In this document: piece by piece, positions 22,701-45,313 of the stretch
Position numbering within the stretch: position 1 is the stretch's first letter
Layout: each line of letters begins with the position of its first letter
Assembly: GCF_026151205.1 (NCBI RefSeq)
Contig: NC_087082.1
Coordinates: 1,190,001-1,250,000 of the forward strand
Length of the DNA stretch: 60,000 bases
From: Bolinopsis microptera
Lineage: Eukaryota > Ctenophora > Tentaculata > Lobata > Bolinopsidae
Direction: 5' to 3'
Made by a program: the position numbers and the translations under genes
The notes under the pieces: generated by a model
What the model was told of the DNA's origin: nothing
What the model saw: only the letters and a program-made list of their open reading frames with translations
Database searches by the model: none

Positions 22701-25526
22701 AGCTCACATCAGCGCCCTGGAGAAACAGCTGGACGGTTAGTTTTAATTCAAGAGTAAACTACAAGTTCTTAAGACTATGAGTTTACAGCTCAGCAGCCAA
22801 TTTCCATGTATTATGATCTATTAGAGGCCAGAAGAAGGGGTTTCAGCATTGTGGCGTAGTCACGTGATGAGGAGTAGTCACGTGATGAGGAGTAGTCACG
22901 TGATGAGGAGTAGTCACGTGATGAGGAGTAGTCACGTGATGAGGAGTAGTCACGTGATGAGGAGTAGTCACGTGATGAGGAGTAGTCACGTGATGAGGAG
23001 TAGTCACGTGATGAGGAGTAGTCACGTGATGAGGAGTAGTCACGTGATGAGGAGTAGTCACGTGATGAGGAGTAGTCACGTGATGAGGAGTAGTCACGTG
23101 ATGAGGAGTAGTCACGTGATGAGGAGTAGTCACGTGATGAGGAGTAGTCACGTGATGAGGAGTAGTCACGTGATGAGGAGTAGTCACGTGATGAGGAGTA
23201 GTCACGTGATGAGGAGTAGTCACGTGATGAGGAGTAGTCACGTGATGAGGAGTAGTCACGTGATGAGGAGTAGTCACGTGATGAGGAGTAGTCACGTGAT
23301 GAGGAGTAGTCACGTGATGAGGAGTAGTCACGTGATGAGGAGTAGTCACGTGATGAGGAGTAGTCACGTGATGAGGAGTAGTCACGTGATGAGGAGTAGT
23401 CACGTGATGAGGAGTAGTCACGTGATGAGGAGTAGTCACGTGATGAGGAGTAGTCACGTGATGAGGAGTAGTCACGTGATGAGGAGTAGTCACGTGATGA
23501 GGAGTAGTCACGTGATGAGGAGTAGTCACGTGATGAGGAGTAGTCACGTGATGAGGAGTAGTCACGTGATGAGGAGTAGTCACGTGATGAGGAGTAGTCA
23601 CGTGATGAGGAGTAGTCACGTGATGAGGAGTAGTCACGTGATGAGGAGTAGTCACGTGATGAGGAGTAGTCACGTGATGAGGAGTAGTCACGTGATGAGG
23701 AGTAGTCACGTGATGAGGAGTAGTCACGTGATGAGGAGTAGTCACGTGATGAGGAGTAGTCACGTGATGAGGAGTAGTCACGTGATGAGGAGTAGTCACG
23801 TGATGAGGAGTAGTCACGTGATGAGGAGTAGTCACGTGATGAGGAGTAGTCACGTGATGAGGAGTAGTCACGTGATGAGGAGTAGTCACGTGATGAGGAG
23901 TAGTCACGAGATGAGGAGTAGTCACGTGATGAGGAGTAGTCACGTGATGAGGAGTAGTCACGTGATGAGGAGTAGTCACGTGATGAGGAGTAGTCACGTG
24001 ATGAGGCGTAGTCACGTGATGAGGAGTAGTCACGTGATGAGGAGTAGTCACGTGATTAGGAGTAGTCACGAGATGAGGAGTAGTCACGTGATGAGGAGTA
24101 GTCACGTGATGAGGAGTAGTCACGTGATGAGGAGTAGTCACGTGATGAGGAGTAGTCACGTGATGAGGCGTAGTCACGTGATGAGGAGTAGTCACGTGAT
24201 GAGGAGTAGTCACGTGATGAGGAGTAGTCACGTGATGAGGAGTAGTCACGTGATGAGGAGTAGTCACGTGATGAGGAGTAGTCACGTGATTAGGAGTAGT
24301 CACGTGATGAGGAGTAGTCACGTGATGAGGAGTAGTCACGTGATGAGGAGTAGTCACGTGATTAGGAGTAGTCACGTGATGAGGAGTAGTCACGTGATGA
24401 GGAGTAGTCACGTGATTAGGAGTAGTCACGTGATTAGGAGTAGTCACGTGATGAGGAGTAGTCACGTGATGAGGAGTAGTCACGTGATGAGGAGTAGTCA
24501 CGTGATGAGGAGTAGTCACGTGATGAGGAGTAGTCACGAGATGAGGAGTAGTCACGTGATGAGGAGTAGTCACGTGATGAGGAGTAGTCACGTGATGAGG
24601 AGTAGTCACGTGATGAGGAGTAGTCACGTGATGAGGAGTAGTCACGTGATGAGGAGTAGTCACGTGATGAGGCGTAGTCACGTGATGAGGAGTAGTCACG
24701 TGATGAGGAGTAGTCACGTGATGAGGAGTAGTCATGTGATGAGGAGTAGTCACGTGATGAGGAGTAGTCATGTGATGAGGAGTAGTCACGTGATGAGGAG
24801 TAGTCATGTGATGAGGAGTAGTCACGTGATTAGCATTGTGGCTCAGATAGTTCTGGTAGTTCTGATCGAATATAGGAAATGTGAGCTGATCAAATGACGT
24901 GTCCCACTGTCCCTATTAATAGGTTCAATTTTCACCTTTTGAGTTGTTTGTTTAATAGCATGCAAGGCATTAAGATGTAAAGAAAACACCGTACAGTGCC
25001 TCTCTTGAATAAACAATCGATGGCAAACAGATTGAAGTTCCCTAATCAAATTGACTGGATCGATCGCTAAATGGGTAATGAGGTTAACAAAACAAAAACT
25101 TCTAAAAGAAGCGGGAACTTTGGAATTGCAAGCGGGCAGTTGCATATTTGCTGTTGCTCTGAAGTCACGGTCTGCTTGTTAACGGAGAAAATTCATCATA
25201 TTATGCTCATAATTGGTATTGTTTCGCACAATAGCGAACATATTAACCAACAAACACGTAATTTATGGTATTGGAACCATAATCTCTGTTAGTATATATA
25301 CATAGATATATAGCTTTAAAAAATTGAATTACAGCGTCGTTTCATTTCGTTATTCACTATGTCTCTACTCTCCAATACCAAACTATGTAAATTAGCTGTT
25401 TAATCATGACTTATATCTACTGTTTCAGAGTTCGAAAGGTGCAGCGAAAAGTTGGACCCTACCCTACAACTCGGTCACGTGTTATACGACCTGGAACAGC
25501 TTAAAATCTTTACTCAGACCGTTTGA
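4733..25526 (+). CDS. PHF20-like: PHF20-like Tudor / AT-hook / C2H2 / PHD chromatin reader, about 29 exons
   Basis: Proposed exons: 4733-4803, 5226-5385, 5587-5677, 6017-6099, 6359-7015, 7157-7389, 7982-8183, 8393-8483, 9033-9319, 9512-9699, 10000-10093, 10280-10435, 11357-12431, 12463-14283, 14434-14520, 14743-14880, 15824-15973, 16729-16771, 16982-17152, 17394-17543, 17863-17976, 18350-18453, 18600-18773, 19082-19267, 19416-19545, 19673-19808, 19904-20062, 22657-22735, 25429-25526. All phases agree, giving about 2375 aa; human PHF20 is about 1010 aa. Two Tudor/MBT-like domains come first (IHYLNWHKRHDQWLP; then AKWIDKHYYPGTI with VLFSDGFKKKLRF). Next are long Ser/Pro/Lys-rich linkers, an AT-hook (RRGKIGRPRSKS), a C2H2 finger (CNIC...HLKHYH), a PHD finger (CTCDS, CDECSQWLHAIC, CPYC) and a C-terminal helical exon pair. 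In known animals such proteins (PHF20, fly MBD-R2) are nuclear methyl-lysine readers of the NSL/MOF acetyltransferase complex. The 9033 acceptor (poor pyrimidine tract) and the 12432-12462 frame change are the weakest points. Confidence 0.85.
6103..6151 (+). repeat. Short CACGTG-containing tandem repeat at a donor site
   Basis: Directly after the exon ending at 6099 the intron starts gtatgttagaccacgtgtt, and the unit ttagaccacgtg recurs about four times. Each nearly complete unit carries an E-box palindrome CACGTG. Confidence 0.7.
7481..7882. mobile_element. MITE-like element with about 50-bp terminal inverted repeats and internal tandem units
   Basis: The left end (ttttacaatttggaaac...) and the right end (...gtttccgaattgtaaaa) are inverted copies for about 50 bp with a few mismatches. 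The interior (7604-7800) is built of diverged units of about 57 bp around tactcgccatgttcac. No ORF is present. It lies in an intron of the PHF20-like gene between the exons ending 7389 and starting 7982. Non-autonomous DNA transposon is the simplest reading; superfamily unknown. Confidence 0.65.
8085..8160 (+). repeat. Coding 21-bp tandem repeat in the PHF20-like gene
   Basis: Three near-identical copies of a 21-bp unit encode MPHMPGN inside the exon 7982-8183. The reading frame is kept because the unit is a multiple of three. Confidence 0.8.
10493..11253. repeat. Compound satellite: inverted 15-mer arms around CCCTGA and CCCTAA telomere-like arrays
   Basis: Within the intron 10436-11356, 10493-10672 holds about twelve units of gacaattgacccccc. 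CCCTGA repeats (about 10690-10835) and CCCTAA repeats (about 10832-10926) follow. Then 10959-11253 holds the same 15-mer family in inverted orientation (ggggggtcaattgtc), interrupted by a duplicated higher-order block starting near 11002 and 11123 (gtcgtactaagccctag). The layout is palindromic, with telomere-type DNA in the middle. Confidence 0.9.
12432..12462 (+). other. Frame change in the PHF20-like gene: 31-nt mini-intron or 1-nt indel
   Basis: The open frame from 11357 reaches a TGA at 12464-12466, while coding sequence clearly continues in the +1 frame up to 14283. Both frames overlap at 12432-12463. Bases 12432-12462 start with GT and end with AG (gtgcaggcaattcaagatca, then cctgacttcag). 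Removing these 31 nt restores the frame exactly. A single-base sequencing or assembly error would do the same. Confidence 0.5.
14881..15823 (+). repeat. Intron with a 58-nt hairpin
   Basis: In this 943-bp intron, 15611-15668 is an imperfect inverted repeat: accgctctgacatggttag on the left pairs with ctaaccacatgggcggt on the right around ctgacacttgtgtcag. The rest is AT-rich apart from a CpG-rich patch at 14985-15190 with no supported gene. Confidence 0.5.
15977..16145 (+). repeat. Minisatellite of ttacttaaac decamers
   Basis: About 16 copies of a 10-mer ttacttaaac, drifting to an 11-mer ttactttaac, start at the donor of the exon ending 15973. Similar units resume at 16475-16530 on the far side of the foldback. 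Confidence 0.85.
16189..16474. mobile_element. Perfect foldback: two 138-bp inverted arms with a 10-nt loop
   Basis: 16189-16326 and 16337-16474 are exact reverse complements (tactgatatctggatattat... and ...ataatatccagatatcagta), separated by aaaaaaatgt. No coding frame is evident. Minisatellite units flank both sides, so the foldback appears inserted in or beside that array. Transcribed as part of the PHF20-like pre-mRNA it would form a 138-bp perfect RNA hairpin. Confidence 0.9.
17544..17862 (+). other. Intron with a CpG-rich patch
   Basis: 17630-17790 is unusually rich in CGCG (cgcgcgcatgcggcgcgcgc) against an AT-rich background. No gene or RNA is recognised. Similar GC-rich patches occur at 14985-15190 and 45080-45250 and may belong to one repeat family. 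Confidence 0.3.
20317..20490. mobile_element. MITE-like inverted repeat
   Basis: Imperfect arms of about 70 bp: ctgtcaccaagatgtaacta at the left end and tagttacatcttggtgacag at the right end. The inner parts share gaattaggtctcacgcaggc-like sequence in inverted copies. It lies in the intron 20063-22656, with no ORF. Confidence 0.7.
20773..20891 (-). repeat. Tandem duplication of the GPCR 3' end
   Basis: The segment starting tctgtatatcctagtcttct (about 20773) is repeated about 69 bp on as tctgtatatcctcgtcttct (about 20842). The second copy holds the last codons and stop of the receptor gene; the first lies just beyond the stop. Confidence 0.75.
20837..21943 (-). CDS. Seven-transmembrane receptor, divergent rhodopsin-like, intronless
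   Basis: A single 368-codon frame. The N-terminus has Asn-X-Thr glycosylation signals (NNTTTTN), and seven hydrophobic segments follow. TM3 ends with TINIMRPF where class A receptors have DRY-plus-basic motifs. The TM7 region has LMNAALFPTI in place of NPxxY, then a basic tail (RKPEMRARYRNY). Length and topology fit a class A-like G-protein-coupled receptor of a lineage-expanded family; the ligand is unknown. It lies entirely inside an intron of the PHF20-like gene on the opposite strand. CTGCAG ends 4 nt before the ATG, so a 5' UTR or leader acceptor is possible. The missing canonical DRY/NPxxY makes coupling uncertain. Confidence 0.8.
   Translation of the reverse strand: MMWTNNTTTTNLPPSTSLIDGQTWGFQYISPLNITIAVYIMIQNSMIIYDYHKDWRRISSLFFILVGAVDIGSACLEIGRGSISLLCLKDPSMRMHPWTFLVCQKFGVLCYVTSMFCVLVLTVVKTINIMRPFYRQNNRLLKIVLFIYPSVLMVVCIIDVWVWNDLITTDNDSPKCGAAAGLLWNIITFLETIGDGTIRLVLRLMMRYFALSDGAATHMMTIMDIVVPLVQFGLPCLIVLVCMVLQMIYIKKAFRGHENLLLNTANQINLTVFLISLLYLCSVSLYCIMTYPLWEYIITPTQTSAIYALLRFTPPLMNAALFPTILILRKPEMRARYRNYIAKVLLLPLTIYGKVRHLAQRRRGYTEI
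22845..24842 (+). repeat. About 110-copy minisatellite of an 18-bp unit containing CACGTG
   Basis: The unit agtagtcacgtgatgagg repeats with few changes (gattagg, cacgag, gaggcg, catgtg variants) from about 22855 to 24831, in the last intron of the PHF20-like gene. Each unit contains TCACGTGA, a palindromic E-box. An identical 11-bp sequence, agcattgtggc, borders the array on both sides (22845-22855 and 24832-24842). The long open frames across the array come only from its 18-bp period and are not genes. Confidence 0.97.
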
Positions 25527-26507: not shown

Positions 26508-29500
26508 TTATAAATCTGGATGCGGAACTGATGTTACTATAACAACAGCCGCGTCTGACCCGTCGTTGGAGAATTCTTTGTCAAATGATGGATCTATTAC
26601 GACTGGATCGTCAGTTAGCACTCTGGAATGATAATCGGTGTTAGGTTGCGAATTTTTCAAAGTGAAAATTGGTATAGCATATATGAATTAGGTATCCAAT
26701 ATCTGCCACGTCGATTGAACCTACGTGTGCATGAATCAGCACTCTGATTTCTCTGAACCAGCCCTTGAAATAAGAGTGAACCGCCAGCTTGCGTGAAATT
26801 CAGCACTAGTTCATTTGTAGCCACGCAATCTACTTTGTAAGTTGCACAACCAGTGTCAAATTTGTAAACCATAGAAGCTACCAGAAGCAACATCTGGTTA
26901 CTGCGTGTGTGATTTTTAAGAACAAAGCGCGGTTTTAGGTGAAACGCGCGGCAAAATTTGCGCGCGCCACCTAGGCAAGGTCACGTGATCTCTACAAATA
27001 TCAAATTGGCGAGTGCGCGTGGCACACACGTAATCTTTGCTACGTGTACAACTCGGCAAATTCTATCCCGATAAACGGCCTTGCCTCACGAAGTGCCGTG
27101 TCACCTTCTCATAATATACAAGTAACGTACACACGAATCATATGCCGTGTACTGTATCAAATAGGTAGCCGTGGATACACTCACTAACTCAGAAGTCATG
27201 CTTCAGTTTCTTTTCGACAAATATAGCATCTCAAAGCGAGCTGAATATCAAAATGATAGCAATTAATATTTGAAATAACTTACAAGTTTTTATCTGCGAT
27301 CCTTAAGTTCATAATCCCGCTAGCAGGAATTATAAGGTGTAAGAGTTCGTTAGTGGCAGCGTTGTGTGGGAATGTGCTTGATGATGGGTACAGCAGCGAC
27401 ACGTACGTCTGAGTGTAATAATCTGACGTAAGCGACTAATCTATACCGATTATAGTCACGTAACTCCAGAGAGAAATTAGTTGTACACTCACCAAATCTT
27501 GAGTTACACGTCTATAATAGGGTCAAATTTCAATTGATAGCTCTCTGAGTAACTTGTTGAAGGATAGCGTTGAGATTTTATCCCATTAAAGTTCGCAAAG
27601 CATAACATTTGTGCAGCGCTTCCACGTTAAATGAAGTTTTAAATATCAAATTACCTTTCCGACTGTTCCATAACCAGCAGCTTTTAACTTCTTACATATT
27701 TCAGGTACTGCTTTACACTCCTCTTTTAACCATTTACCATTCTCAGATAAACCGAAATAGCCCCAGACTCCCTCTCTAGTATTACCACCCTCCATATCAC
27801 CGAATAAACCTGAAACACAAGGAAATATTTTAAATATGATACTCTTCAGGCCGAGTAGAGTGTTAGCCGTTAGGCGGGTGCACAATTTACTGTACTGTGT
27901 TTTTGGTGGAGCAGGTTTGGATGACGTGTCAAATTGTTTATCTAAGCTTGAGGAAACTAGCAATTACTTAGCCGGCGAGGATTTAACAAATACAAAACAG
28001 TACATGCGTACATAACATGTACGGTGGAGACTGGAGAGTTATTACATATTTTATACGTGTCATGTCGAGATGTCTTTTTAAATAGCGTCCAATGCACACC
28101 AATATAACTTTATAGCACTGAATATATATAATGCTGACACATATTTTATGCAGTCTTGCTGCGTTAATATATACACATAAATACAGAAAGTATATAATAT
28201 GTACAATCTAATAATATGTGTCCATGCCCACAAAAAATACGCATATATATAAGTAAATAAACACGCTAAAAGGGTCCCATTACATGGCTTGATTAAAATT
28301 GAGTAACAGTTTTAATGACATTGACTAGGTGAAATTATGCAGCACCACGTACGCTTTACTAACATACCATTTGCAATAACACACAATATAATATACTTGA
28401 GAAACCGAATCACATCCCTTAGAGCCTTAGGGACTGTTCACATATTATGCAAGGTATTTATTATGTAAGGTATTTTTGGGTAGCATAAAATTAGTTCCAT
28501 AAATACCATGATATTTTATGGAATGTCGGAAAGCAACAAATAACAAAGGTAATATGTTAATATCTTCAACTTAACGGGAAGTAAGCATGGGATAATTACC
28601 TTTGTAGATAACAGCCTGTACAATCGCCTCCCTATCCTCAGGAGTCAGCTCCACTGCTGTCAGTTCCAGATCAGTCCACACGGGGATTCCCTTCAGGGCT
28701 CTGTTCATGCTACTGGGACGTTGGAACACGGAGGTCAGTAATCCCGCTGCTACAGCATCTTCGTATATTTTCATGGCCTGAAACGGGGGAGTTGTTAGTA
28801 TTTTATTGTGTGATTTTATGCGGGAATTTCAAGATTTGTTTAATTTTAGTTTTGTGATAATTAGCAACGTAATTAAGCGATTTCATTATAAAACATATTA
28901 AAATATACATATGTTATGTAATTATATATACTGCTATAAATGTCCATTTGATAACAAATCAGCCCATCAATTCCAAATTTGATTAACATGTTCGGGAATA
29001 TTCTTTAATCCCAGCTGCTAAAAATAATGTTTAAAACCACCCAAAATTAGCCATAGAAATGTAAGAATTATCAAACCCCGAAATTGTCATTTGACAATTG
29101 AATTTGAAGACTTCGACTGCAATAGAAAATCAAATACTGAAAGTCTCAAAATGACCGGATAGGTAGGTCCCTATTTCTCCTGGAAGTTTTTCACTTTAAA
29201 GTAGCTGCATTATTTTGGATCACTTGAGATTCAGTGACTACCACTGCACTACCAATATCACACTCATTCTCCCGCACACAAAGTGAGGGATGTTTGACCC
29301 ACTCCTCCCTACCCAACACCAGAGCTACCCCCACACTTAGCACCCCTACCACACTCACACCCCCGTTAAACAAGAAGAAGTTTCTCCATCTTGTTTCCCG
29401 CACTTGCCAGTAGTCTGCTGTTCCCTCGTCCAGACTGGTAAACGCAGCGCTTACTAGAGGAGCAATGAACCCTGATGCCTGACCAATTCCGTTCAGAATA

Positions 29501-32500
29501 CCTACAATAACAGTACAATTGATGGGGTCCAGCTCAAAAGTAACGGTCAATATTCCACCAGCATATACTGTACCCGTGAGAATATTGTGGATAATCAGGA
29601 GGACAACTGAAGCTGTCAGGTTTCCAGTAATCGGAACAAGAGCCACACAAAGACCACGCAGAAACATGGGTACCACCATCATTAAAACCCTGCAGTGTAG
29701 CCAGGGGATCCTCGCGTCTAAATACGGGAGGAGCCGACTAAATAAAAAGATAGCAACACCCGTTGTGAGGCTGAGGGCTAAGAAGAGGTATCCTAGGAAT
29801 TCAGAGTCCGTGCCAAATACCTCGTTGAAGTAAAAGGGCATCATTGTGGAGATTGAGAAGAAGAGGAATGTTCGGCAAATTCCGTAGATACTGAAGCAGT
29901 AGAGATATTTCCGTTTGAATATCAGCTTCAGCGACAGTTTGTCCTCTGTTTCAGTTTTTATTCTATTTTCTTCATTCTCCTTCTTCTTAAGAAACATTTG
30001 GCGCTCTTTTTCTGACATAAACTTAGCATCTATAGGGTCATCTGGCATGAAGATACACATAAATGTCAAGGCAACCAGGAAAACTGCCCCACTCAAATAA
30101 AAGGCGTACCTCCATCCTACTGATTTACTGAGAAGACCCGCAGCAAATGGCCCAATTCCAGCCCCAGAGTAAGCCATTATCCCAGTCAGAGATATAACCA
30201 GCTTGGCCTCGTCATTGAGGCTCCACTTTCGAGCACAATCGAAATTGTTACTCAGAAACACCCCACACACGAACCCACGGAGACCCTGAACGATGGTCGC
30301 TAATACGGGAGAAAGGGCGACCGTGGCGGGAACAGTAAGCTGCACTACCCCGCAGATAAACGTAGCTAGTCTAACACATCTAGTGAACCCCAACCTTACA
30401 GCCAGATACGTGCTGACCATCTGGATAGCGTATCCGTAGTAGAAAACTCCTAGGAAGGTAGCTTTGAGTTGGTCTCCCCAGCAGTAGTCACCAGTGTCCA
30501 GTGGGTCCGAGCAGTTCTTCTTTGCCATTCCACCGATCATGGCGAGGGGAGGGATGGCACGTGATGCGTTGTCGTGGAAAATAAGGAACGTACAGATGAA
30601 GAAACTGAGGAATCGGTAACAAACCATGATGAGACGATTTAGGAATGATAATATTGTTCATAAAAGGAACTGTGAGTAATAGGGCGGTTCAGAATTGGAC
30701 GGTTCAGAAATAACCTGTTATAAAAAGGTGTCACGTCCTCGAACGATGTGAGACAGTGAAGTATGAATGAACCAGAATACTGGTTTGGACTTGTTAATCA
30801 GATTGATCGATCAAACAATCAGTTGAGTGGAGCTCTTATCACCGAATTAGTCGTTTGGTAACCATCCAATTGTTAAATTCCATTCATCTTTCACAGCACT
30901 TTTTTTTTTGCCATTTTATTAATTAAAGATTTGTGCGCATTCCTGAGATTTTAATTCCACAGATAAATCAATATTCTGATTCGATATCTTTAACCCCGTA
31001 CAAATCCTTAATCAGTACTCTAAATTTCCTGTTTTAGATAACGATATTGTATTTTTTGTTTATTGTGGATATATCTTTAGCTTTGGGTGACCGACAACTG
31101 AACCCAATTAAACCTAGTTCCCACTAACCAATCAGCTTAATTGGTTAGGGTTAGGGTTAGAGTTAGGGTTAGTCTAAATTGTCATATTGGGTTCAGTTGT
31201 CCGGTAGCCTATCTATATTTTAAGCTTTTTAGTTCATTAATTGAACAAACCTAGTATGCCTTGGTTGCAGCATCACTTCACTTATAGGTGCGGTGCACTT
31301 ACGGCCCGATGTAATTGCTATGACCAGTTTCTGGCAATCTGTTGTTTCGGTGTCCCTAATTTTGTTTACACTCGGTCACTTGACAAGCCATGTACTATAC
31401 AGGTGATTTGGTGATTTGTTTGTAATAAAATTATGAACTAATTCGTGTAACAGATTGAAAGTTCATTGATTAAAGATTAAAAAACGTAAGGTAAATATGG
31501 CGTGATTTCACTGCTGCTAGAAATTTAAATCACTAGAACAAAGGCAGTGGGAATAGCGATGATAACATTTCAGTTTGAAATAACATTTCCGTTGAAATAA
31601 ATGTAGTTTATGAAATTATCGCGTAGTAATGACATTTTTTAAATGTGTAAAACCGTGAATTAAACCGTTCAATGTAAAGGATTATAACTTATAAAAGAAA
31701 GCATCGACGATTTATCTATTTCATTTCAAGGTTAAATAAAACTGCAACTCAGAATGAGTTTAAAACTTTTAGACCATCGGGTATGTAGATAATACTGTCA
31801 CCTTAGAATAGAACATTCCCGTCAATTAAAACCGCGCATATTTTACATTTTTCATGGTTGTCCGAATCTATTGTTCAGCTAATAACTAGTGTACTACACA
31901 TTGTATAGTTGAGTTGCCTAATAGCTGAACAATGCAGGAGTCACCGGGGAAGTGAAACGTCCACAACCCTCAACATTCTTTTAAAACTATCCTGCTTTAC
32001 TTACATTTCTTACATAACTCCACTAATTTTATTACAAATCTAATTGATGGACCTGACAAAGGGGATGGAGTGGAATTAATAATTAGTGGATAAATGACAT
32101 GGCAGTTTCAAAGCTTGTAACTCTAGGACAATCTGTGCTGTTTGCGCATTCTGCTCGCACATTCATATGAAATTAACTTTGTCAACCCAATCATCATGTA
32201 AGACATTTATCTTTTTTAAACCGACCTCAATTCAGAGAAAACACGTACCGAACAAAATATATTCGAGCATATTGTGCAACATTTCCTTCATATGCCCCGT
32301 TAAGGGGTACTCCTCATCTACATTGTAGGTAACAAACATAATGTGATATAGCTACAGTGCATGCCTGCCACAATTTTATTGAATTACAAATATCTAATCA
32401 TTCCAAAATCTGATTTAAGGCCTATCCCATATATCACGTACGTCGTACAAAGAGCAACAGTATCATGTACGTGTTATTCAGTACGCTCAATGGATATTAT

Positions 32501-35500
32501 AGTGCTATACTAATTCATGTGTACATTAAAAGTTACCACTTGATTCATGAGGTTGACGTTATTTTATTACTATACCGTTATTTTCATTAACTATGTATAA
32601 TATTACTCATAACAGTGTGGTTACTGTGGTTACTGTTACGTGTTACACTTGTGAGTGTTACACTTGTGTGGGTTACACTTGTGAGTGTTACACTTGTGAG
32701 TGTTACACTTGTGAGTGGTACACTTGTGAGCGTTACACTTGTGAGTGTTGCACTTGTGAGCGTTACACTTGTGAGCGTTACACTTGTGAGCGTTACACTT
32801 GTGAGTGTTACACTTTTGAGTGTTACACTTGTGAGTGTTACACTTGTGAGTGTTACACTTGTGAGTGTTACACTTGTGAGTGTTACACTTGTGATAGCTA
32901 CACTTGTGAGCGTTACACTTGTGAGCGTTACACTTGTGAGTGTTACACTTGTGAGTGTTACACTTGTGAGTGTTACACTTGTGAGTGTTACACTTGTGAG
33001 TGTTACACTTGTGAGTGTTACACTTGTGAGTGTTACACTTGTGAGTGTTACACTTGTGAGTGTTACACTTGTGAGTGTTACCCTTGTGAGTGTTACACTT
33101 GTGAGTAATATAACTGTGCTTTATAAGTATAACATACCAATCAGCTTACCAGAACTACATAAGTACTTAGTACAGGTCTTAAAACTGTACTAAGCACTTA
33201 GTTCAGTTAAGAAACACGGTAATAATATTGAGCCGGGTAGTGATAGCTTCAAACCAGATTTAAATATTTACAACAAAAACTATTTACAACAAATCACACA
33301 CACACACACACACACACCTCATCATTAGTTACCACCTAGTTACCACCTAGTTACCACCTAGTTACCACCTAGTTACACACCTCATCTGGTCGGCCAGCTT
33401 TCTGTAAGCAGTCCCCCAACATAGAGACAACCTCGACAGTCTTATCAGTCACTGATAACAGGATATCTGCGGCTTTGTTCAGAGGTTCTACTTCTCCACT
33501 CCTGTCCTTGTCCCAGAGTGTCTTGTACGCTTGCGCTTGTAGCAACTGCAAATATTCGATTGATTAGATTGGTGTGCTTCAAACGCCTTTATTGAAAACA
33601 TGTCTCATTATTAAACTTATATTTCTGGGAAACAGTGGAATTTCTAAGAAAACTGTAATTTCCTAGAAAACTGTGACTCATAAGAAAGGTAACACGTATG
33701 AGTTCGATAGATAAAATTGCGTGGAACTCTTATCTTCTGCACGCATAATTCACCAATCTTAGAAATAGAAGTACTACTTTCAACTTTTCAATAAAAAGCT
33801 TTGAAGCGTGCGGGAAAAGATGTACAATATTGGTCAATAATTATATTTAACATATTCAATACAAAGCATAGATCTATAATAATAAAATTTTTAAAGCTAA
33901 GAAAAGTCACACACAATCATTCGCCATGATAATCTAATATAATTACATAACGTAATTTTAGCCTATAGCACTTCAGCACAGTAAATTTAATCTTCATAAA
34001 ACACGAAACCCTTACAATTCTACCAAAATAAAGCGTAATTGTAGATAAAGAAACTCCGTATCCTAGTTCAAATCTAATATACGAATTAAACCACTTTGTA
34101 CGTGATTTCATGTTGTACGTGGTTCTGTACGTGGTTCTGTACCAGCTTAGGTACAATAATAACCGGAACACACCTGAGCAGACCCACCAGTGTCCAGTAC
34201 GTGATATTCTGTGTCTGTGACACGACCACACAGTTGCTGAGTCACAGTAACGAGATCTATATTATATATAATGTGTGTGTGTGGAACACCTGTGATAATG
34301 ATACGTGTTCGTACGGACCTCGTGTTGTAAAGGGTCTGGATCTAAGGTATAATAGCGCCACCTATCAGTTATATACATGTTACTATGTTGTGTAAGTATG
34401 ATACTGTAAGTAGTAGAGTAATTACAGTCATCATACTTATTTAAGAGCATTTAAGGATAAATGAGAGTTTGAACTTAAAACTGGTCCTCAAAAGAGATTC
34501 GATTAGTTCCGCTGCAGTATATATAATGATATTGATAGAGATTTTTCTAGAGTTGATATGGTAAAGGAAGAAAGATTGAATTAATCTTGTATAATGTACC
34601 AGGGACACAACATCTACGTGATAAATACTAAACATGTTGTAGTCCTGAAGTTTGGTAGAGAAGGTGGATATACCGGACCGAAATATTTAAAAATACTTAA
34701 ACAGACAAAAGGTCTCACCTTAACAGAAATTGAATCTTGATTAAGAGAGGCGGCAATCTCCAGGGCTTTTTCAGGATCGTCATTTTGTATATGAGTATCC
34801 ACTGAAAAAACAAGGTTTTATACATTTAAACAATTATAACTAACGCATCATTCAAGACGTAGTCAAAAAAAGGAGAAAATAAGAAACGAAGCATGCAATT
34901 TGATACTTATATTATTTTGCATATATTATAATGTTATTCTAATAAAAGTAAGAGTATTTACCTAGCAATAAGTTATTTACCTAGCAATAAGTTATTTACC
35001 TAGCAATAAGTTATTTACCTAGCAATAAATTATTTACCTAGCAATAAGTTATTTACCTAGCAATAAGTTATTTACCTAGCAATAAGTTATTTACCTAGCA
35101 ATAAGTTATTTACCTAGCAATAAGTTATTTACCTAGCAATAAGTTGAGTTCCAAATCTTCACCGTGGTGTGGTAGATACTTCTCTAGTGTAGACACTGCC
35201 ATTCTCACTCTTCCTGACTTTATTAACAGCCTTACTACACTGAAATACAAGTTACTAGTAACCTAGAAACCTAGTAACCTTACTAGACTGAAATACAAGT
35301 ACTGTGACCAAGTGTACTGTGACCGAGTGTTATACTGTGAGTCTGTGACCAAGTACAAGTGTACTGTGACCAAGTGTACATTTAAACAAGAGCATGGTAT
35401 TATTACTGTTACTGATTGTAAGGCATGATTATGAAATGTTATTTCGTTGTAATTAATAAACTCTCACGGAACATTCTTAATATTTTCAGGAACAAATGAG

Positions 35501-37690
35501 AAACTTAACTATATTAGTGAGCAATTATAATATTATGCAACTATTATCTATTGGATCTATCATCTATACCTTAATCCTTATGCAACATTAAATGAACTAA
35601 GGCAAAAATATACACAAATATTTACATACCTTTGAAGAGCAGGCTTTAAAATTTCTTTGGGGAGCTTTTTCCCGAAATTGACCACAGTTCTGAATGCTTG
35701 TATCGCATTTCTCTCCTGTTTAGGATCAACCTCTATTAATTTCTCTAATGCTAAAGCGCTGCCGTACATTGCAATATGTGATCGTTTGCCGAGGTCGTTG
35801 TTTAATTGGTCAAACTTTTCCTTAGCTGCACCAGCATCTGTCTTCATGAGTTCAAAACTAGCTTTTATGTCAGACCATCTTTCTCTTTCTTTGTCTGTCA
35901 AATATGATGGAATTTCTTCTTCTGTAACTTCCTCCTCAGCTGCAGGAGCTACCTCTTCAACAGGAGCTGCTTCTTCGATAGGAGCTACCTCTTCGACAGG
36001 AGCAGCTTCTTCGACAGGAGCTGCTTCTTCGACAGGAGCTGCTTCTTCAACGGGAGCTGCTTCTTCGACGGGAGCTGCTTCTTCGACAGGAGCTGCTTCT
36101 TCAACAGGAGCTGCTTCTTCGACAGGAGCTGCTTCTTCGACGGGAGCTGCTTCTTCGACGGGAGCTGCTTCTTCGACGGGAGCTGCTTCTTCGACGGGAG
36201 CTGCTTCTTCGACGGGAGCTGCTTCTTCGACGGGAGCTGCTTCTTCGACAGGAGCTGCTTCTTCGACGGGAGCTGCTTCTTCGACGGGAGCTGCTTCTTC
36301 GACGGGAGCTGCTTCTTCGACAGGAGCTGCTTCTTCAACGGGAGCTGCTTCTTGGACAGGAGCTGCTTCAACAGGAACTGCTTCTTCGACAGGAGCTGCT
36401 TCTTCGACGGGAGCTGCTTCTTCGACAGGAGCTGATTCTTCAACGGGAGCTGCTTCTTCAACGGGAGCTGCTTCAACAGGAGCTGCTTCTTCGACAGGAG
36501 CTGCTTCAACAGGAGCTGCTTCTTCGACGGGAGCTGCTTCAACAGGAGCTGCTTCTTCGACAGGAGCTGATTCTTCAATGGGAGCTGCTTCAACAGGAGC
36601 TGCTTCTTCGACAGGAGCTGCTTCAACAGGAGCTGCTTCTTCGACAGAAGCTGATTCTTCAACGGGAGCTGCTTCAAAAGGAGCTGCTTCTTCGACAGGA
36701 GCTGATTCAACAGGAGCTGCTTCTTCGACGGGAGCTGCTTCAACAGGAGCTGCTTCTTCGACAGGAGCTGATTCTTCAACGGGAGCTGCTTCTTCAACGT
36801 GAGCTGCTTCAACAGGAGCTGCTTCTTTGACGGGAGCTGCTTCTTCGACAGGAGCTGCTTCAACAGGAGCTGCTTCTTCGACAGGAGCTGATTGTTCGAC
36901 AGGAGCTGCTTCAACAGGAGCTGCTTCTTCGACGGGAGCTGCTTCAACAGGAGCTGCTTCTTCAACAGGAGCTGCTTCTTCAACAGGAGCTGCTTCTTCA
37001 ACGGGAGCTGCTTTTTCAACGGGAGCTGCTTCAACAGGAGCTGCCTCTTCAACAGGAGCAGTCTCTTCTTCTATGGGAGCAGCTACTTCAACTGTTTCAG
37101 TAGTCTCCTCAGCTTCCATCTCGTTTTCTTTAACATCTTCAGCTGCATCTTCAGAAACAGAAAAGGGCACTTCCTCGACTTTTGCAGGATCCTCTTCTTC
37201 AGATTCTATAGGGGCTTCTACTGTTGGTTCACTTTGGTCTTCAGTAGCTTCCTCTTTTTCCTGAGCAGTTTCGGGTTCACTCAAGGGAGTATCAACAACA
37301 CTTTCGGAAGGTATCTCAGCCTGAAGTACAGGTTTGGCTGGAGCAACGATGCCAAATTGTTGGAAAATGGGAGATACATAGGGTATGTTGATGCCAAATT
37401 GTGAAGTTGCTAGTGCCATGCCTCCAACTGCACATACTAGTAAAATAGCTCCAATTACTGCACCTGATGTTCCTGAAAATAGTCTTACATGAGTTTCAAT
37501 CGCGAGTGCTACAATTATAAATAACTAACACAAAGGATTTTTACATGGGATGCAATCTCTGAAATGGTCAACTTTAGCTCCATTCAGATACCTCACATCA
37601 CTCCTATTAACTTGATGTGGCAAACTCACCATTTTCTTGAGTAGGTGCTGCTTTGGGCTGTTTCGTGGCTTCTTTGTTTTTGCTCGGCAT
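26508..37690 (-). CDS. ASPH-like: ASPH-like type II membrane protein with acidic repeat and probably inactive hydroxylase domain
   Basis: Nine exons in transcript order: 37690-37630, 37472-35630, 35239-35133, 34801-34719, 33545-33381, 28777-28600, 27809-27655, 27408-27284, 26622-26508. All phases agree, giving 943 aa. Residues 1-23 are basic and cytoplasmic; 24-42 are transmembrane. Then comes a roughly 400-residue Ala-Pro-Val-Glu-Glu repeat, a TPR-like helical region (e.g. KALEIAASLNQDS, LGDCLQKAGRPDEAMKIYED) and the C-terminal domain. In known animals ASPH is an ER protein hydroxylating Asp/Asn in EGF-like domains; shorter forms (junctin, junctate) act in ER calcium handling. The junction KIYEDAVAAGLLTSVFQRP and the end VIDPSFDKEFS...HPDL align with ASPH. 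His879 matches the first iron ligand, but Lys921 stands where the second His is expected and Ala931 where a 2-oxoglutarate Arg is expected. Four residues are missing near the Arg688 region. Catalysis is therefore doubtful. Confidence 0.8.
29191..30627 (-). CDS. SLC17-type major facilitator transporter, intronless, nested in an ASPH-like intron
   Basis: A single 478-codon frame with about 12 hydrophobic segments. An N-terminal anchor and a short luminal loop with Asn-Cys-Ser come first. QGLRGFVCGVFLSNNFDCARKW corresponds to the SLC17 TM4 region, and SVGWRYAFYLSGAVFLV to TM6 with the following FMPDDPIDAKFMSEKER loop, where SLC17 proteins have a Pro-x-x-(I/M)S-x-x-E pattern. Known relatives move organic anions, phosphate, glutamate or sialate with protons or sodium; the substrate here cannot be told. 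The C-terminal tail is cytoplasmic and polar. It lies between ASPH-like exons 33381-33545 and 28600-28777, on the same strand, so the host pre-mRNA contains it in sense orientation. Intronless structure and nesting suggest a retrocopy or an intron-poor lineage expansion. Confidence 0.8.
   Translation of the reverse strand: MVCYRFLSFFICTFLIFHDNASRAIPPLAMIGGMAKKNCSDPLDTGDYCWGDQLKATFLGVFYYGYAIQMVSTYLAVRLGFTRCVRLATFICGVVQLTVPATVALSPVLATIVQGLRGFVCGVFLSNNFDCARKWSLNDEAKLVISLTGIMAYSGAGIGPFAAGLLSKSVGWRYAFYLSGAVFLVALTFMCIFMPDDPIDAKFMSEKERQMFLKKKENEENRIKTETEDKLSLKLIFKRKYLYCFSIYGICRTFLFFSISTMMPFYFNEVFGTDSEFLGYLFLALSLTTGVAIFLFSRLLPYLDARIPWLHCRVLMMVVPMFLRGLCVALVPITGNLTASVVLLIIHNILTGTVYAGGILTVTFELDPINCTVIVGILNGIGQASGFIAPLVSAAFTSLDEGTADYWQVRETRWRNFFLFNGGVSVVGVLSVGVALVLGREEWVKHPSLCVRENECDIGSAVVVTESQVIQNNAATLK
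32632..33108 (+). repeat. Minisatellite of a 15-bp unit (ttacacttgtgagtg)
   Basis: About 31 units with single-base variants (gagcg, gagtgg, gatagc) in ASPH-like intron 5. The 15-bp period keeps two plus-strand frames open; these are not genes. Confidence 0.95.
33297..33376. repeat. (CA)n and agttaccaccta 12-mer repeats next to a splice donor
   Basis: A short (ca)n run at about 33297-33317 is followed by four copies of the 12-mer agttaccaccta. These directly abut the donor of the ASPH-like exon 33381-33545 (minus strand). Confidence 0.8.
34960..35152 (-). repeat. 19-bp tandem repeat that copies a splice donor ten times
   Basis: The unit (minus strand) cttattgctaggtaaataa occurs about ten times. 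The first copy in transcript order is the exon-intron boundary of exon 35239-35133 (ttgctag|gtaaat). All following intronic copies repeat the same potential donor. One copy has a t for g (aataaatt). Confidence 0.9.
35945..37060 (-). repeat. Coding minisatellite of the ASPH-like acidic repeat
   Basis: 18-bp units (APVEEA) mixed with 15-bp units (APVEA) and variants (APVEES, APVEK, APIEE). All lengths are multiples of three, so the frame is intact over about 1.1 kb. The 3' half is more uniform than the 5' half, as expected for recent expansion. Confidence 0.95.
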
Positions 37691-39026
37691 CCCTATAAGC
37701 CTTTTAAAGATGAGAATTGTCAAATCATGATTGTTGTTATTGAAGGTAATCATGAAATAGACAGAGAAGTGAATCAATAAGGAATGAATCCAATCGAATT
37801 TCAGATTTTGCTTTACAATCAATGACAACTTGTGCATTCAACTTCTTTTATCAAATTTTCCCGGATTTGATAAAATCGAATCGGAAAATAAAGAAATAAT
37901 GGCCCTTTTGTGAAAAATTCAAACAACATGTTCAATAAAACTGTTTTAAGAGTGTAAGTATAAATAATAAATGATCTTAACATTGCATTGGCTCGAGTAA
38001 CACGGTAACAATGAACAAATAAACTCAGGATATTACCCTCAACTCTGTGATCAATGCTACCAAAATAATGGAATAGAAATGTTCGATCTGTAATTATATC
38101 TTCACATAGCACAAATTCAATCAAGTGTTTCACGATATATCAAAATCGTTCCAATAACAATCTGTTAGTTCAGCAATCTTTGATTATGAAAAACACACGA
38201 TCATCATTTCACACTGAACACAGGACACTATTGCCATCGACCAGTATGATCAAATATTCAAAGAATGAAATTGTTTAAACCATTACTCAATCAAGACATC
38301 GGTTATCGTGCCCATCTAATAATTATTAACCCCGAGCTACATTACACGTTCGGCAATTTGCAACAATCAAATAAATATAAAAACGAATCATACCACAGAA
38401 TTAGATGAGACTTAACACTACTTAACTATTTCAAAGTAATTTGATCGCTATTTGTTTTGTCCCTGCCTCTTTGGGAATACATTCGATGAATTTTAAGTAT
38501 CCTCAGCTCAGGTTGAGTCTTTTGTTTGCACATCTTATCATAAATCTTAAAACATAAGGTCACTTTCATATTAGAAGAAGGATTGATCACGCAAAGGCAT
38601 TTTAGTGACACAGACAAAACAAACAGCGACGTCCTCAACCAATACCATAATATCTGTTAACATAAGACGTGAATGTACCATAAACAATTTTATATCTTCA
38701 GTTGATGTGAAAAGCAGAGTTCCTCCTAAAGGCTAAAGCAGCTACTACATAAGTTCAATATCAAAAAATCAAACCTGAGGAACTCATTACAATTAATCAT
38801 TGCTGTGCTATACAATTCTTCCAAAGTAGCTGCAAATGTTTCAAACCTTATCTCTGAGACAAATCTAGGTCCCAAGTCGTCATGTTGGACACTGCAATCA
38901 ACTTTATTAGGTTATTTAAATACTTTCTCTTTAAACTGATAATTAAAAAATTCTAATTCAATCGTGACTGATCCGATTAGGACACTGACATTGATTAAAA
39001 TTTGACCTGATGTAGTGAGCACAATT
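37691..39026 (-). other. Spacer between the ASPH-like gene and its upstream paralogue
   Basis: AT-rich DNA holding the presumed promoter/5' end of the ASPH-like gene. The start codon at 37690 is preceded 2 nt upstream by a weak acceptor (gcttatag). One open stretch at about 38770-38900 (minus) follows a cag but shows no homology. No other feature is seen. Confidence 0.4.
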
Positions 39027-42000
39027 TTACTCATTTACCGATGCCTCTATATGGGCATCATCATTAATTTCAACATTGTCTTCTTCAACAGGTGCTTCTT
39101 CTTCGACAGGTGCTGCTTCTTCGACAGTTGCTGCCTCTTCGACAGGTGCTTCCTCTTCTTCAACAGGTGCTGCTTCTTCAACAGGTGCTGCCTCTTCGAC
39201 AGGAGCTGCTTCTTCTTCAACAGGTGCTGCCTCTTCTACAGGAGCTGCTTCTTCGACAGGAGCAGCCTCTTCTTCGACAGGTGCTTCTTCTTCGACAGGA
39301 GCTGCCTCTTCTTCGACAGGTGCTTCTTCTTCAACAGGTGCAGCCTCTTCTTCAACAGGCGCTTCCTCTTCAACAGGAGCAGCTTCTTCTTCGACATGTA
39401 CTTCCTCTTCGACAGGAGCAGCTTCTTCGACAGGATCAGCCTCTTCTTCAACAGGAGCTGCTTCTTCGACAGGAGCAGCCTCTTCTTCGACAGGTGCTTC
39501 CTCTTCGACAGGAGCTGCCTCTTCTTCAACAGGTGCTTCCTCTTCGACAGCAACAGCCTCTTCTACAACAGGAGCTGCCTCTTCTTCAACAGGTGCTTCC
39601 TCTTCGACAGCAACAGCCTCTTCTACAACAGGTGCAGCCTCTTCTTCAACATGTGCTTCCTCTTCGACAGGAGCAGCCTCTTCGACAGGAGCAGCCTCTT
39701 CTTCAACAGGAGCTGCCTCTTCTTCAACAGGTGCTTCCTCTTCGACAGCAACAGCCTCTTCTACAACAGGTGCAGCCTCTTCTTCAACAGGTGCTTCCTC
39801 TTCGACAGGAGCAGCCTCTTCTTCAACAGGTGCTTCCTCTTCGACAGGAGCTGCCTCTTCTTCAATAGGTGCTTCCTCTTCGACAGCAGCAGCCTCTTTT
39901 ACAACAGGAGCTGCCTCTTCTTCAACAGGTGCTTCCTCTTCGACAGGAGCTGCCTCTTCTTCAACAGGTGCTTCCTCTTCGACAGGAGCTGCCTCTTCTA
40001 CAACAGGTGCTTCCTCTTCGACAGCAGCAGCCTCTTCTACAACAGGTGCTTCCTCTTCGACAGGAGCTACCTCTTCTACAACAGGTGCTTCCTCTTCGAC
40101 AGCAGCAGCCTCTTCAACAACAGGAGCTGCCTCTTCTTCAACAGATGCTTCCTCTTCGACAGGAGCAGCCTCTTCTTCGACAGGTGCTTCCTCTTCGACA
40201 GCAGCAGCCTCTTCTACAACAGGTGCTTCCTCTTCGACAGCAGCAGCCTCTTCAACAACAGGAGCTGCTTCTTCGACAGGAGCTGCCTCTTCGACAGCAG
40301 CAGCCTCTTCTTCAACAGGTGCTTCCTCTTCGACAGCAGCAGCCTCTTCTACAACAGGAGCTGCTTTTTCGACAGGAGCTGCCTCTTCGACAGGAGCTGC
40401 TTCTTCGACAGGAGCTTCTTCTTCAACGGGAGCAGCTTCTTCTTCGACAGGTGCAGCTTCTTCTGCAGGAGCAGCTTTCTCAAAGTGGATATGATACTTT
40501 TCAGGGGTAACCCGTTTTAAGGCGTTTTTCAACACTTGGAATCCTGTTTGGATTTTTTCATCAATGCCATATTCCTTCAGCATAGGAGAAATTATAGGGT
40601 GTGCCAGGTTATGACTCTTCAGAAGTGGGGTCACATGAGGAATGTGATAACCGAATTCTGATACAAGAACAAACACGGACACAGCAGCCAATGTGATGAA
40701 GAGAATAGTGGGAACAGCATTTCCCTTTGGAGCGGCCATTTCTTTTTTGGTTGCACCTGTGGAATGAGGATAGAGTTAAATATTATCATTTCACAAATTA
40801 TAAAATATATTTCAGCTTAAAATGATTTGAAACAGCTCATGAGGGGGGCAGGGGGAGCAGCACCTGATTTTTTGTGAAACTTGATTTAGACAGCAGTTGA
40901 GAAACAAAATAGGATCAGGGACCAAATTCTCAGGCACCCACTGCCTAGACTTGCAAAAGGGCTGCCAGACCATTGCGAACCCGTGAACCTAACCACTAAC
41001 CAATACAAACAAAATCAAGTTGTTAACATGTTGCTTGAAAGTTGAAGCACCATTAGAAATAATTGTATAGCTCCGACATTTTAGGATTAATTAATGCGAA
41101 TTATACACATCTAGCATAACAAAGAACCGTCAGAAAAGTAGAAACCATCAAAACCTGGCAGATAGATGAATCAAAAAGAATATTGAAAATTTTCAACCAA
41201 ATTGTCTACCATCCAATTGATTTAGAAGTGATATTATAGATTATGCTGATGTGTAAGAGCATATATACTGCATGCAAACTGTGACCCAGAAAGCCTGTTC
41301 AACTTCAAGGTATTGACAGAAAAGAAAGTGGAATTGTTGAGTAAAACATTGTTAGAGCTTTGATAAATTTTAATAACAATTTGCCTTGTATGTGTTTTCA
41401 GAAAATGATGTTTTGCTCTGACACTGAGTATTGTTCTTGAAGTGTAAATTTGACATGAACTGTTGGAATCTTAGGAATTTATCAGATTGTTGTTTGTCCA
41501 TGTGCTGGCATGGAGTACTTTTAGAGCGCATCTATTTGTGTAAGACTGCTGTCCCTTAATACCTAAAGTCTCCTCTGATCTGTTATTATTCAACAAAGGC
41601 AAGGAGAAACAATAGTAGCAGCAGCCACCAAATCTATTGTGTGTTAATTTCCATAGTAGGAAACAACAGTTTTATGCAGCTAATCTAAGTTTGTAGGAAC
41701 TGGGACACCCCCCCCCCCCTAACATTCTGATTTCAAACAAATAGGCACTCAATAAGTTCCTAGAGAAAATTGAACTTGCTCGGTTTTATAGCATATTATA
41801 GGCTCATTTAATTAACAAGCTTGTAAATCATTAAAATCGAAAGAAGATTAATAATTTTGGCTCTGAGTTGGAATACTGCGCATGTTGGAGTTACAAATAG
41901 AAATATGCACTATTTCAGAGACAAATTAATGATTTAGATTTAAAGCTCATTAATGCAAAACTTGCTGAGAAGGACAAGGAATCAAGAAAGCAAAACCCAG

Positions 42001-42319
42001 AAAACTTCAAGCGTTGTGTATAATTAACAGTTTTTAGAGGTACCTAGTATGTTACTGTATTCACTGTGGTATCAATGTAAATAAACAAAAATTTTATTCT
42101 AAGTGATCACTGATTTTGGAAACAGGTAATAATCATGAAATCCGAATCACAGATTTAATTTGTGCTACGAAACAATGACAACTGTGTACTACTATTTATT
42201 ACAATGAATCAAAGGGTGCTTTATTATTCCTCAACAAATTACAGTAAGAAAGCTATATCACCTTGGCTTTTCCTCTTCTTTTCCCTGTTAGCGGAGGCGG
42301 TTCTTTTGCTCACAGGCAT
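39027..42319 (-). CDS. Junctin-like type II membrane protein with long acidic repeat, paralogue of the ASPH-like N-terminus
   Basis: Exon 1 is 42319-42262 (MPVSKRTASANREKKRKSQ, phase 1). Exon 2 is 40756-39027 (acceptor ttccacag) and runs to a stop, giving about 595 aa. Residues 1-32 are strongly basic; 33-51 form a transmembrane helix (TILFITLAAVSVFVLVSEFG). HIPHVTPLL follows, matching NIPYVSPIF after the ASPH-like helix. About 470 residues of Ala-Pro-Val-Glu-Glu repeat make up most of the rest. The intron phase after exon 1 is the same in both genes. By analogy with junctin/junctate from the mammalian ASPH locus it could anchor in the ER with an acidic, calcium-binding luminal part; this is inference. 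A possible donor (TCG|GTAAATGAG) lies three codons before the stop. If used, exon 2 would join a phase-0 acceptor, such as ASPH-like exon 33545. An acceptor-like tttctag lies 9 nt before the ATG. Confidence 0.7.
39080..40485 (-). repeat. Coding minisatellite of the junctin-like acidic repeat
   Basis: 18-21 bp units encode EEAAPVE/EEEAPVE with variants AVEEEAPV, APVVEEA and AHVEEE. Indels are in multiples of three. The repeat is similar in peptide but not identical in codon pattern to that of the downstream gene (gtgcttcctcttcgac here, gagctgcttcttcgac there). Confidence 0.95.
41440..41650 (+). repeat. Diverged 200-bp duplication, copy 1 (copy 2 at 43503-43700)
   Basis: Shared landmarks in order: ttgacatgaact, gagtactttt, taagactgctgtc, agtctcctctgatctgttat, ttattcaacaaagacaag/gcaag and cagccacca/gtagccacca. 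Similarity is roughly three quarters by eye. No coding sense is seen. Confidence 0.75.
41919..42023 (+). CDS. Isolated candidate 3'-terminal coding exon, plus strand
   Basis: After an acceptor-like gcactatttcag, a 35-codon frame encodes a charged helix beginning RQINDLDLKLINAKLAEKDK and ends at TAA (42021-42023). The amphipathic pattern and acceptor suggest a last exon of a coiled-coil protein. However, I find no partner exon on the plus strand in the preceding kilobase, and it lies antisense within intron 1 of the junctin-like gene. It could be a remnant or chance. The family is unrecognised. Confidence 0.25.
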   Translation, partial: RQINDLDLKLINAKLAEKDKESRKQNPENFKRCV

Positions 42320-42759
42320 GGCTACTGGCTAGAAACAAGGCTAGTTTTAAAATTGAACAATAATATTATCATTGTGAACAGAACATTAATAGCAATTTGT
42401 TTGCATATTTTTGTTCATTAAGTAAAAAGGCTGTCGATTGAAAATAAAAACTTAAACCTAATGGGCCAGAAAAAAACCCTTGAAAAACTCAAATTATTTT
42501 GGTCAGAATTGCTCATAAATTTCAGAGGTCATAGATATGGGTCATACATAGATTCCCATAGAGTCGTAATTCTTAAGCATGAAACTAGTTGCAACCCAGG
42601 AAATTTTAAAATGAACCACTAAATCACAGCACTTTTTAATATCAGCAAATAATGCTTGCAATGTTAACAAAATGGTCCTAGAATTTGATGTTTTACAGTA
42701 AAGGGTAAAGGTACAGATCTTTAAAGGGTTAAGTATATGGAGTATTATTGTCCTTAAAG

Positions 42760-43503
42760 TTTAAGGGGGCCGGGGGGGGGTCTTCATCAAAATTCTCTCG
42801 AAATTGACTTTATAGTTGTTTCTGATAGAGGGGAGTGATATCTATCAGCTGTTCTTAGTCCCATGGAAAAATATTGTTCCTAGCCGAAATTATTGCCGGT
42901 CAGAGGTCAGCGCTTATGAGTAATTGTATTGCGCGAGCGATTTTCAATCGCGCGCCCTGAAAATCGAGTCTAAAAATCTATCTTCTCCTACATTTTTTGA
43001 GCAATCACCCTGAAACTTTCAGGATATGTTCTAAGGACCATTTAGAAGAGATTGTCGGGCCAGAATTTTGAGATAGGCCTTAAAAAATGTTTTATTCGAT
43101 TTTGAAAATCTTGGACCTCGTTTTTTGACGATTTTTTCAGGTCCAAGATTTTAAAAATTGAATAAAAAATTTTCTAAGGCCTATCTCAAAATTCTGGCCC
43201 GACAATCTCTTCTAAATGGTCCTTAGAACATATCCTGAAAGTTTCAAGGTGATTGATCAAAAAATGTAGGAGAAGATAGATTTTTAGACTCGATTTTCAG
43301 GGCGCGCGATTGAAAATCGCTCACGCAATACAATTACACATAAGCGCTGACCTTTGACCGGCAATAATTTCGGCTAGGAACAATATTTTTCCATGGGATT
43401 AAAAACAGCTGGTAGATATCACTCACCTCTATCAGAAACAACTATAAAATCAATTTCGAGAGAATTTTGATGAAGACCCCCCCCCCGCCCCGGCCCCCTT
43501 AAA
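42760..43503. mobile_element. Foldback element, 744 bp, with arms of about 360 bp
   Basis: The left arm starts tttaagggggccgggggggg and the right arm ends ccccggcccccttaaa. Arms match with scattered mismatches through aattctctcgaaattgac, cctagccgaaattattgccg, aaaatctatcttctcctaca and gggccagaattttgagatag to a centre near 43130. No ORF is present. A non-autonomous foldback/MITE-type transposon, or a transcribed-hairpin locus, is likely. Confidence 0.9.
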
Positions 43504-44750: not shown

Positions 44751-44771
44751 CTTATAAAAACCGGAAAGCAA

Positions 44772-45281: not shown

Positions 45282-45313
<32 letters not shown>

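What the first reader, a model, noticed from the sequence alone, without database searches (positions are those of the whole stretch)
26508..27408. ASPH homologue that appears to have lost its catalytic residues
The last two exons align with the ASPH hydroxylase core. As I recall the human protein, iron is held by His679 and His725, and 2-oxoglutarate by Arg688 and Arg735. Here the first His is kept (FPHNAATN, residue 879). The second is Lys921 (SFDKEFS), the Arg735 position is Ala931, and a deletion of about four residues removes the Arg688 segment. The frame, splice sites and C-terminal HPDL are intact, so this looks like a maintained pseudoenzyme with a structural or calcium-related ER role rather than a decaying gene.
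Basis: partly seen in the sequence, partly recalled or inferred. Interest (0 to 1): 0.75.

Follow-up and report, generated by a model that had tools for sequence, protein, structure and literature searches.

The report
Comb jelly hydroxylase with dismantled active site
A comb jelly gene related to the human enzyme that hydroxylates EGF-like domains keeps its overall layout but has lost most of the residues needed for the chemistry, so it probably survives as a membrane-anchored structural or calcium-handling protein.

Summary
The minus-strand gene (9 exons, 37690-26508) encodes 943 aa: basic N-terminus, one hydrophobic helix, an acidic region with a ~390-residue PVEEA-type repeat, TPRs and an AspH-type domain (PF05118 above cut-off). 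His879 is kept; Lys921 replaces human His725, Ala931 replaces Arg735, and four residues around Arg688 are missing. No rescuing exon was found in the window. Two points need correction. The genome is a ctenophore's, not a cnidarian's; size and 13 contigs fit Bolinopsis microptera. And His725 loss alone proves little: human H725A is still active, and Arg688 varies in relatives. The case rests on the combination, chiefly Arg735 and Asp721. The only other AspH-type gene found (contig C2) looks like ASPHD1/2 and keeps all these residues. Maintenance is supported by open, correctly phased exons and a kept hydrophobic pattern, but not proven: no sister-species or RNA data were at hand. A calcium or scaffold role is inference. 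Verdict: probable AspH pseudoenzyme, a new variant of a known kind.

The parts
37630..37690 (-). exon 1 (candidate): MPSKNKEATKQPKAAPTQEN plus one base, basic N-terminus
   Evidence: one of four ATG-to-phase-1-donor candidates that a scan of 37473-47500 listed (three of the four share this donor); joins exon A in frame to give 943 aa
35630..37472 (-). exon A: hydrophobic helix (residues 24-42), acidic region with PVEEA-type repeat, start of TPR
   Evidence: 142 E + 5 D against 6 K/R in the 517 residues from the exon start (helix included) to EEIPSYL; repeat part 391 residues
35133..35239 (-). exon B, TPR
   Evidence: AG/GT and phase; TPR_19 hit
34719..34801 (-). exon C, TPR
33381..33545 (-). 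exon D, TPR
28600..28777 (-). exon E, end of TPR and hinge (SVFQR, as human SVWQR)
27655..27809 (-). exon F, start of AspH domain
27284..27408 (-). exon G, AspH core: Ser668 and His679 equivalents kept, four residues around Arg688 missing
26508..26622 (-). exon H, AspH core end: Asp721 to Pro, His725 to Lys921, Arg735 to Ala931, HPDL stop

Best explanation
A ctenophore AspH (TPR-type ASPH) that no longer works as a 2-oxoglutarate hydroxylase but is kept as a type II ER-membrane protein. Shown by sequence: basic N-terminus, one hydrophobic anchor, a long, strongly acidic region, TPRs, and an AspH-fold domain whose hydrophobic pattern is largely kept while the second-sphere Asp721, the second His and the 2OG arginine 735 are changed. 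Inferred: the acidic repeat lies in the ER lumen and binds much Ca2+ weakly, as in junctate and junctin, and the TPR plus dead domain serves as a protein-binding scaffold. EGF hydroxylation, if it persists in this animal, would fall to the ASPHD-like gene on C2.
For: H725, R735 and D721 are invariant in 31 of 31 compared sequences (29 of the 30 bacterial loci found, human, own ASPHD-like) and all three are changed here (Asp721 lies inside a peptide pattern used to find the loci, His725 and Arg735 do not). In human AspH, R735Q, R735W and R688Q were inactive under standard assay conditions (passages of PMC12816917), D721A is substantially less active (passage of PMC13168262), H725A kept reduced activity (passages of PMC8252765). 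Human substrate contacts are changed too: Lys666 and Gln627 to Tyr; His493 to Leu, Arg526 to Glu, Tyr565 to Ser (read by eye; human roles in passages of PMC6817910). Maintenance: nine exons, no internal stop, consistent phases; hydrophobic columns hold a hydrophobic residue in 26 of 35 against 15 of 70 at polar columns; exons G and H score 3.9 and 4.9 in their own frame against a 95% point of 1.1 in 857 overlapping stop-free windows. Acidic region: 147 acidic against 6 basic residues in 517.
Against: Single-His human variants are active; R735Q and R688Q kept reduced activity under optimised conditions and R735 variants accept other 2-oxoacids, so residual or altered chemistry cannot be excluded from sequence. 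His679, Ser668 and possibly His690 remain. The EGF-contact argument is weak: among the 31 relatives Lys666 is Lys in 1 and Gln627 is Gln in 6, and the TPR alignment around His493 and Arg526 has low confidence. No RNA, no sister species, no dN/dS. For exons G and H one reverse-strand frame scores higher (4.1 and 6.5), and the null windows largely come from the introns that also set the background, which flatters the test. 9 of 16 near-invariant positions are kept overall, so preferential loss at the active site is not shown statistically. Calcium binding is untested.
Confidence: 0.6

Rival explanations
1. The domain is under relaxed constraint: the gene is selected for its anchor, acidic repeat and TPR, while the oxygenase domain is merely tolerated and drifting toward loss.
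For: Longest terminal branch of 32 sequences, 2.11 against 0.56 for human and 0.97 for own ASPHD-like; only 9 of 16 near-invariant positions kept.
Against: Hydrophobic pattern largely kept, no stop or frameshift, HPDL end intact.
Confidence: 0.25
2. Still an enzyme: a single-His iron site that uses another 2-oxoacid or another substrate.
For: Human H679A and H725A retain activity; human R735Q/W accept hydrophobic 2-oxoacids; His679 and Ser668 are kept here.
Against: Asp721, His725 and Arg735 are lost together; Lys is a poor iron ligand (general knowledge).
Confidence: 0.06
3. Gene-model or assembly artefact: the true last exons lie elsewhere and restore the residues.
For: No transcript data; exon prediction is by homology and splice signals only.
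Against: A profile scan of 2378 window ORFs of 15 aa or more ranks exons H, F and G first, then chance-level frames; genome searches reported no AspH exons besides this gene's and those on C2, though they score only the best candidates.
Confidence: 0.06

Closest known systems
Human AspH (ASPH), aspartate/asparagine beta-hydroxylase
   Same: TPR domain followed by an AspH double-stranded beta-helix domain ending in HP[ED]L; type II anchor and acidic lumenal region in the human protein (anchor and lumenal side; acidic region recalled)
   Different: His725, Arg735 and Asp721 lost; acidic region is a PVEEA-type repeat; ends at HPDL, whereas the human chains run about 11 residues further
Junctate, humbug and junctin (non-catalytic products of the vertebrate ASPH locus)
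   Same: anchored proteins of that locus without catalysis, with calcium or structural roles
   Different: those lack the catalytic domain by splicing (starts of the abstracts of PMC2625362 and PMC1764734); here the domain is present but altered
ASPHD1/2-type protein (own genome, C2, L003)
   Same: AspH domain
   Different: keeps the metal and 2OG residues, 149.3 bits against 27.2 for PF05118; I noticed no TPR in the ORF list of L003:5000-10000 and did not look further; the name ASPHD is recalled from sequence resemblance

Membership tests
PF05118 (Asp_Arg_Hydrox) domain family | score above curated cut-off | tested here: met
   27.2 bits against 22.6, profile 31-157 of 157 (most PVEEA repeats left out of the query)
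Catalytic AspH | two metal histidines (679, 725) | tested here: not met
   H679 kept, H725 is K921
Catalytic AspH | 2OG arginine 735 | tested here: not met
   A931
Catalytic AspH | second-sphere Asp721 | tested here: not met
   Pro
Catalytic AspH | TPR domain before the oxygenase domain | tested here: met
   TPR_19 34.7 bits against 25; human TPR-Ox aligned over query 50-405
Catalytic AspH | EGF-domain hydroxylation | not testable with these tools
   needs an assay
Junctate/junctin-like ER calcium protein | single anchor and acidic region | tested here: met
   no 19-residue window above 1.6 (Kyte-Doolittle) beyond residue 60, best window at 24-42; 147 acidic against 6 basic of 517
Junctate/junctin-like ER calcium protein | Ca2+ binding and ER location | not testable with these tools
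   needs bench work

The most novel reading that the evidence does not exclude
In ctenophores the two jobs of the vertebrate ASPH locus are split between genes: the TPR-type ASPH has given up chemistry and become a dedicated acidic ER calcium-store scaffold, next to a junctin-like gene, while an ASPHD-type protein carries any remaining EGF-domain hydroxylation.
Probability: 0.22. Interest if true: 0.62.

Novelty: new variant of a known kind. Interest (0 to 1): 0.42.

Why it matters
AspH is the only characterised EGF-domain Asp/Asn hydroxylase that I know of (general knowledge), and human variants of it cause Traboulsi syndrome. Loss of the catalytic residues in the only TPR-type AspH found in a ctenophore would be a natural experiment on which parts of AspH are needed, and would point to ASPHD proteins, for which I know of no established activity, as possible enzymes. 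The genome still encodes EGF domains with the hydroxylation consensus (the EGF_CA profile itself favours that motif), so the question is directly testable by mass spectrometry.

Tried and rejected
Alternative catalytic exons in the window: none found. The next-ranked frame after exons H, F and G, at 27691-27581, overlaps exon F in another frame and is chance-level (E 0.18).

A second TPR-type ASPH in the genome: not found with PF05118, human Ox or the window protein. Sensitivity is limited: only best candidates are scored, human TPR did not find even the window's own TPR exons, and human Ox found exon F only at E 4.02 and did not list G and H. An intact gene should score like the ASPHD-like exons (E about 3e-5).

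Loss of all EGF substrates as the cause: not supported. 12 of 12 EGF_CA loci examined (of 43 matches) hold the motif C-x-[DN]-x4-[YF]-x-C-x-C; five of the 12 overlap in one gene region, and the family profile that chose them favours this motif. The four DSL loci examined (of 72 matches) held none.

A shared first exon for the junctin-like ORF and ASPH: not supported. The candidate ASPH first exon lies downstream of that ORF. Both exons have the same acceptor phase (by eye), so it is not excluded. A resemblance of the two post-anchor segments is by eye only: the genome search with the junctin-like N-terminus listed just itself at E <= 1, not exon A.

No collection was searched for a sister-ctenophore orthologue; those offered are described as prokaryotic, viral, plasmid, phage, E. 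coli and metagenomic, and the one scan made returned 30 bacterial loci.

Literature: no paper on an AspH pseudoenzyme or on ctenophore AspH appeared among the rows that I saw: 5 of 5; 15 of 37; 15 of 1,355; this search counted ASPH twice and so says little on ctenophores; 15 of 54; 7 of 8; 12 of 71; 7 of 7; 8 of 15. Most subscription journals are absent from that library. Papers: PMC6817910, PMC13168262, PMC12816917, PMC8252765, PMC10232365 and PMC11797021 seen as passages; PMC2625362 and PMC1764734 as starts of abstracts in a listing.

Full report
What is there. The gene lies on the minus strand. Exons A to H were chosen by homology, AG/GT signals and phase and checked; a candidate first exon at 37690-37630 completes a 943-aa protein with no internal stop. 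The protein reads: 21 residues with four Lys, one hydrophobic helix at 24-42, then an acidic region: the 517 residues from the start of exon A (helix included) to EEIPSYL hold 142 Glu, 5 Asp and 6 basic residues, 391 of them in the PVEEA-type repeat. TPRs (TPR_19 34.7 bits) and a PF05118 domain (27.2 bits, cut-off 22.6) follow. Human AspH TPR-Ox matches query residues 50-405 of 405 at E 1e-15; designed PPR proteins rank above it because of their many repeats. Against a profile of 31 relatives the domain scores 45.7 bits; the best of 500 shuffles scores 6.0.

Which residues are lost. Human roles are taken from passages of PMC6817910 and PMC13168262. Kept: His679 and Ser668. Changed: His725 to Lys, Arg735 to Ala, Asp721 to Pro, Gly681 to Ala. 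Four residues around Arg688 are missing; whether His690 is among them depends on the aligner (differ). Among 31 relatives (29 of 30 bacterial loci, with L063 dropped as too short; human; own ASPHD-like), His725, Arg735 and Asp721 are invariant and Arg688 is Arg in 11. The loci were found by peptide patterns that cover positions 677-684 or 716-723, so invariance there, Asp721 included, is partly by construction; 725 and 735 lie outside. Human EGF-contact positions are also changed: Lys666 and Gln627, and, read by eye, His493, Arg526 and Tyr565. These weigh less: Lys666 is Lys in 1 and Gln627 is Gln in 6 of the 31, and the alignment near His493 and Arg526 has low confidence.

What this means for catalysis. 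But H725A raises the Km for 2OG about 200-fold, R735Q cuts kcat/Km for 2OG from 280 to 0.09, R735W was inactive with 2OG under all tested conditions (passages of PMC12816917), and D721A is substantially less active. R735Q and R688Q did keep reduced activity under optimised conditions, and R735 variants use some other 2-oxoacids. All three positions, 721, 725 and 735, are changed here together. I judge normal AspH activity very unlikely; residual or altered chemistry is not excluded.

Organism. The best PDB match of a glutamate receptor from this genome is the receptor ML032222a (that this name means Mnemiopsis leidyi is recalled), and the closest gene here is 81% identical to it over 109 residues, so it is a ctenophore but probably not Mnemiopsis leidyi itself. 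The genome holds 264.65 Mb, and the matches listed lie on contigs C1-C13; I saw the length of C2 only (23.0 Mb). Bolinopsis microptera is listed as 265 Mb with 13 chromosomes and 346 scaffolds; 232 contigs are held here, so the species is likely, not proven.

Other AspH genes. PF05118 and human AspH both find one further gene, on C2. Its exons, joined by eye from L003, give a domain with 149.3 bits for PF05118 and all of His679, Arg688, His690, Asp721, His725 and Arg735. It resembles ASPHD1/2 (recalled). The window protein found only its own seven exon matches; no second TPR-type ASPH was found, within the stated limits of sensitivity.

Maintained or decaying. For maintenance: nine open exons in phase; a hydrophobic residue at 26 of 35 hydrophobic columns (3 are gaps) against 15 of 70 polar columns; exons G and H score 3.9 and 4.9 in their own frame, best of the three forward frames and above the 95% point (1.1) of 857 overlapping stop-free windows from outside the gene's exons. 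Against, or neutral: one reverse-strand frame scores higher for each (4.1 and 6.5), exon B does not score best in its own frame, the highest null window reaches 10.1, and most null windows come from the sequence that set the background; the window has the longest branch of 32 sequences (2.11); only 9 of 16 near-invariant positions are kept. No sister-ctenophore orthologue was at hand, so selection could not be measured.

How it probably works. Shown: an anchored, very acidic protein with TPRs and an AspH-fold domain lacking key residues. Inferred: lumenal ER orientation (basic N-terminus), low-affinity Ca2+ binding by the repeat as in junctate and junctin, and protein binding by TPR plus domain. 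The neighbouring ORF at 39027-40756 has a hydrophobic start, a similar acidic repeat and no catalytic part; this recalls the junctin side of the vertebrate locus, where splicing makes enzyme, humbug, junctate and junctin (start of the abstract of PMC2625362). Its likeness to exon A is by eye; a genome search with its N-terminus did not list exon A. The genome still encodes EGF domains with the hydroxylation consensus (12 of 12 EGF_CA loci examined of 43, five of them overlapping, chosen by a profile that favours the motif), so wholesale substrate loss does not explain the change.

Verdict. A probable AspH pseudoenzyme in a ctenophore: real, moderately surprising, a new variant of a known kind.

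Noticed in passing
39027-40756, minus strand: Junctin-like ORF (570 aa from its in-exon ATG: hydrophobic start plus acidic repeat, 196 Glu) directly upstream of the ASPH gene; its post-anchor segment resembles that of ASPH by eye, but a genome search with its N-terminus listed only itself at E <= 1.
   Followed up: partly
29191-30657, minus strand: Intronless MFS transporter gene (MFS_1, 101.6 bits) nested, same strand, in the intron between exons D and E.
   Followed up: partly
34955-35145: The end of exon B with its GT donor is part of a 19-bp tandem array of 10 copies, so the splice donor itself is repeated in series.
   Followed up: no
22856-24830: 18-bp tandem array, about 110 copies at 98% match, downstream of the gene.
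   Followed up: no
49099-53718 and 54498-55943, minus strand: Two long frames that look like Copia-type retroelement polyproteins (recalled resemblance, not tested); a frame at 55207-55455 (plus) recurs at 59381-59629 (minus).
   Followed up: no
L003:6021-6782, plus strand: Frames that look like a Rho-type GTPase lie antisense within the ASPHD-like gene, apparently in an intron (label recalled).
   Followed up: no
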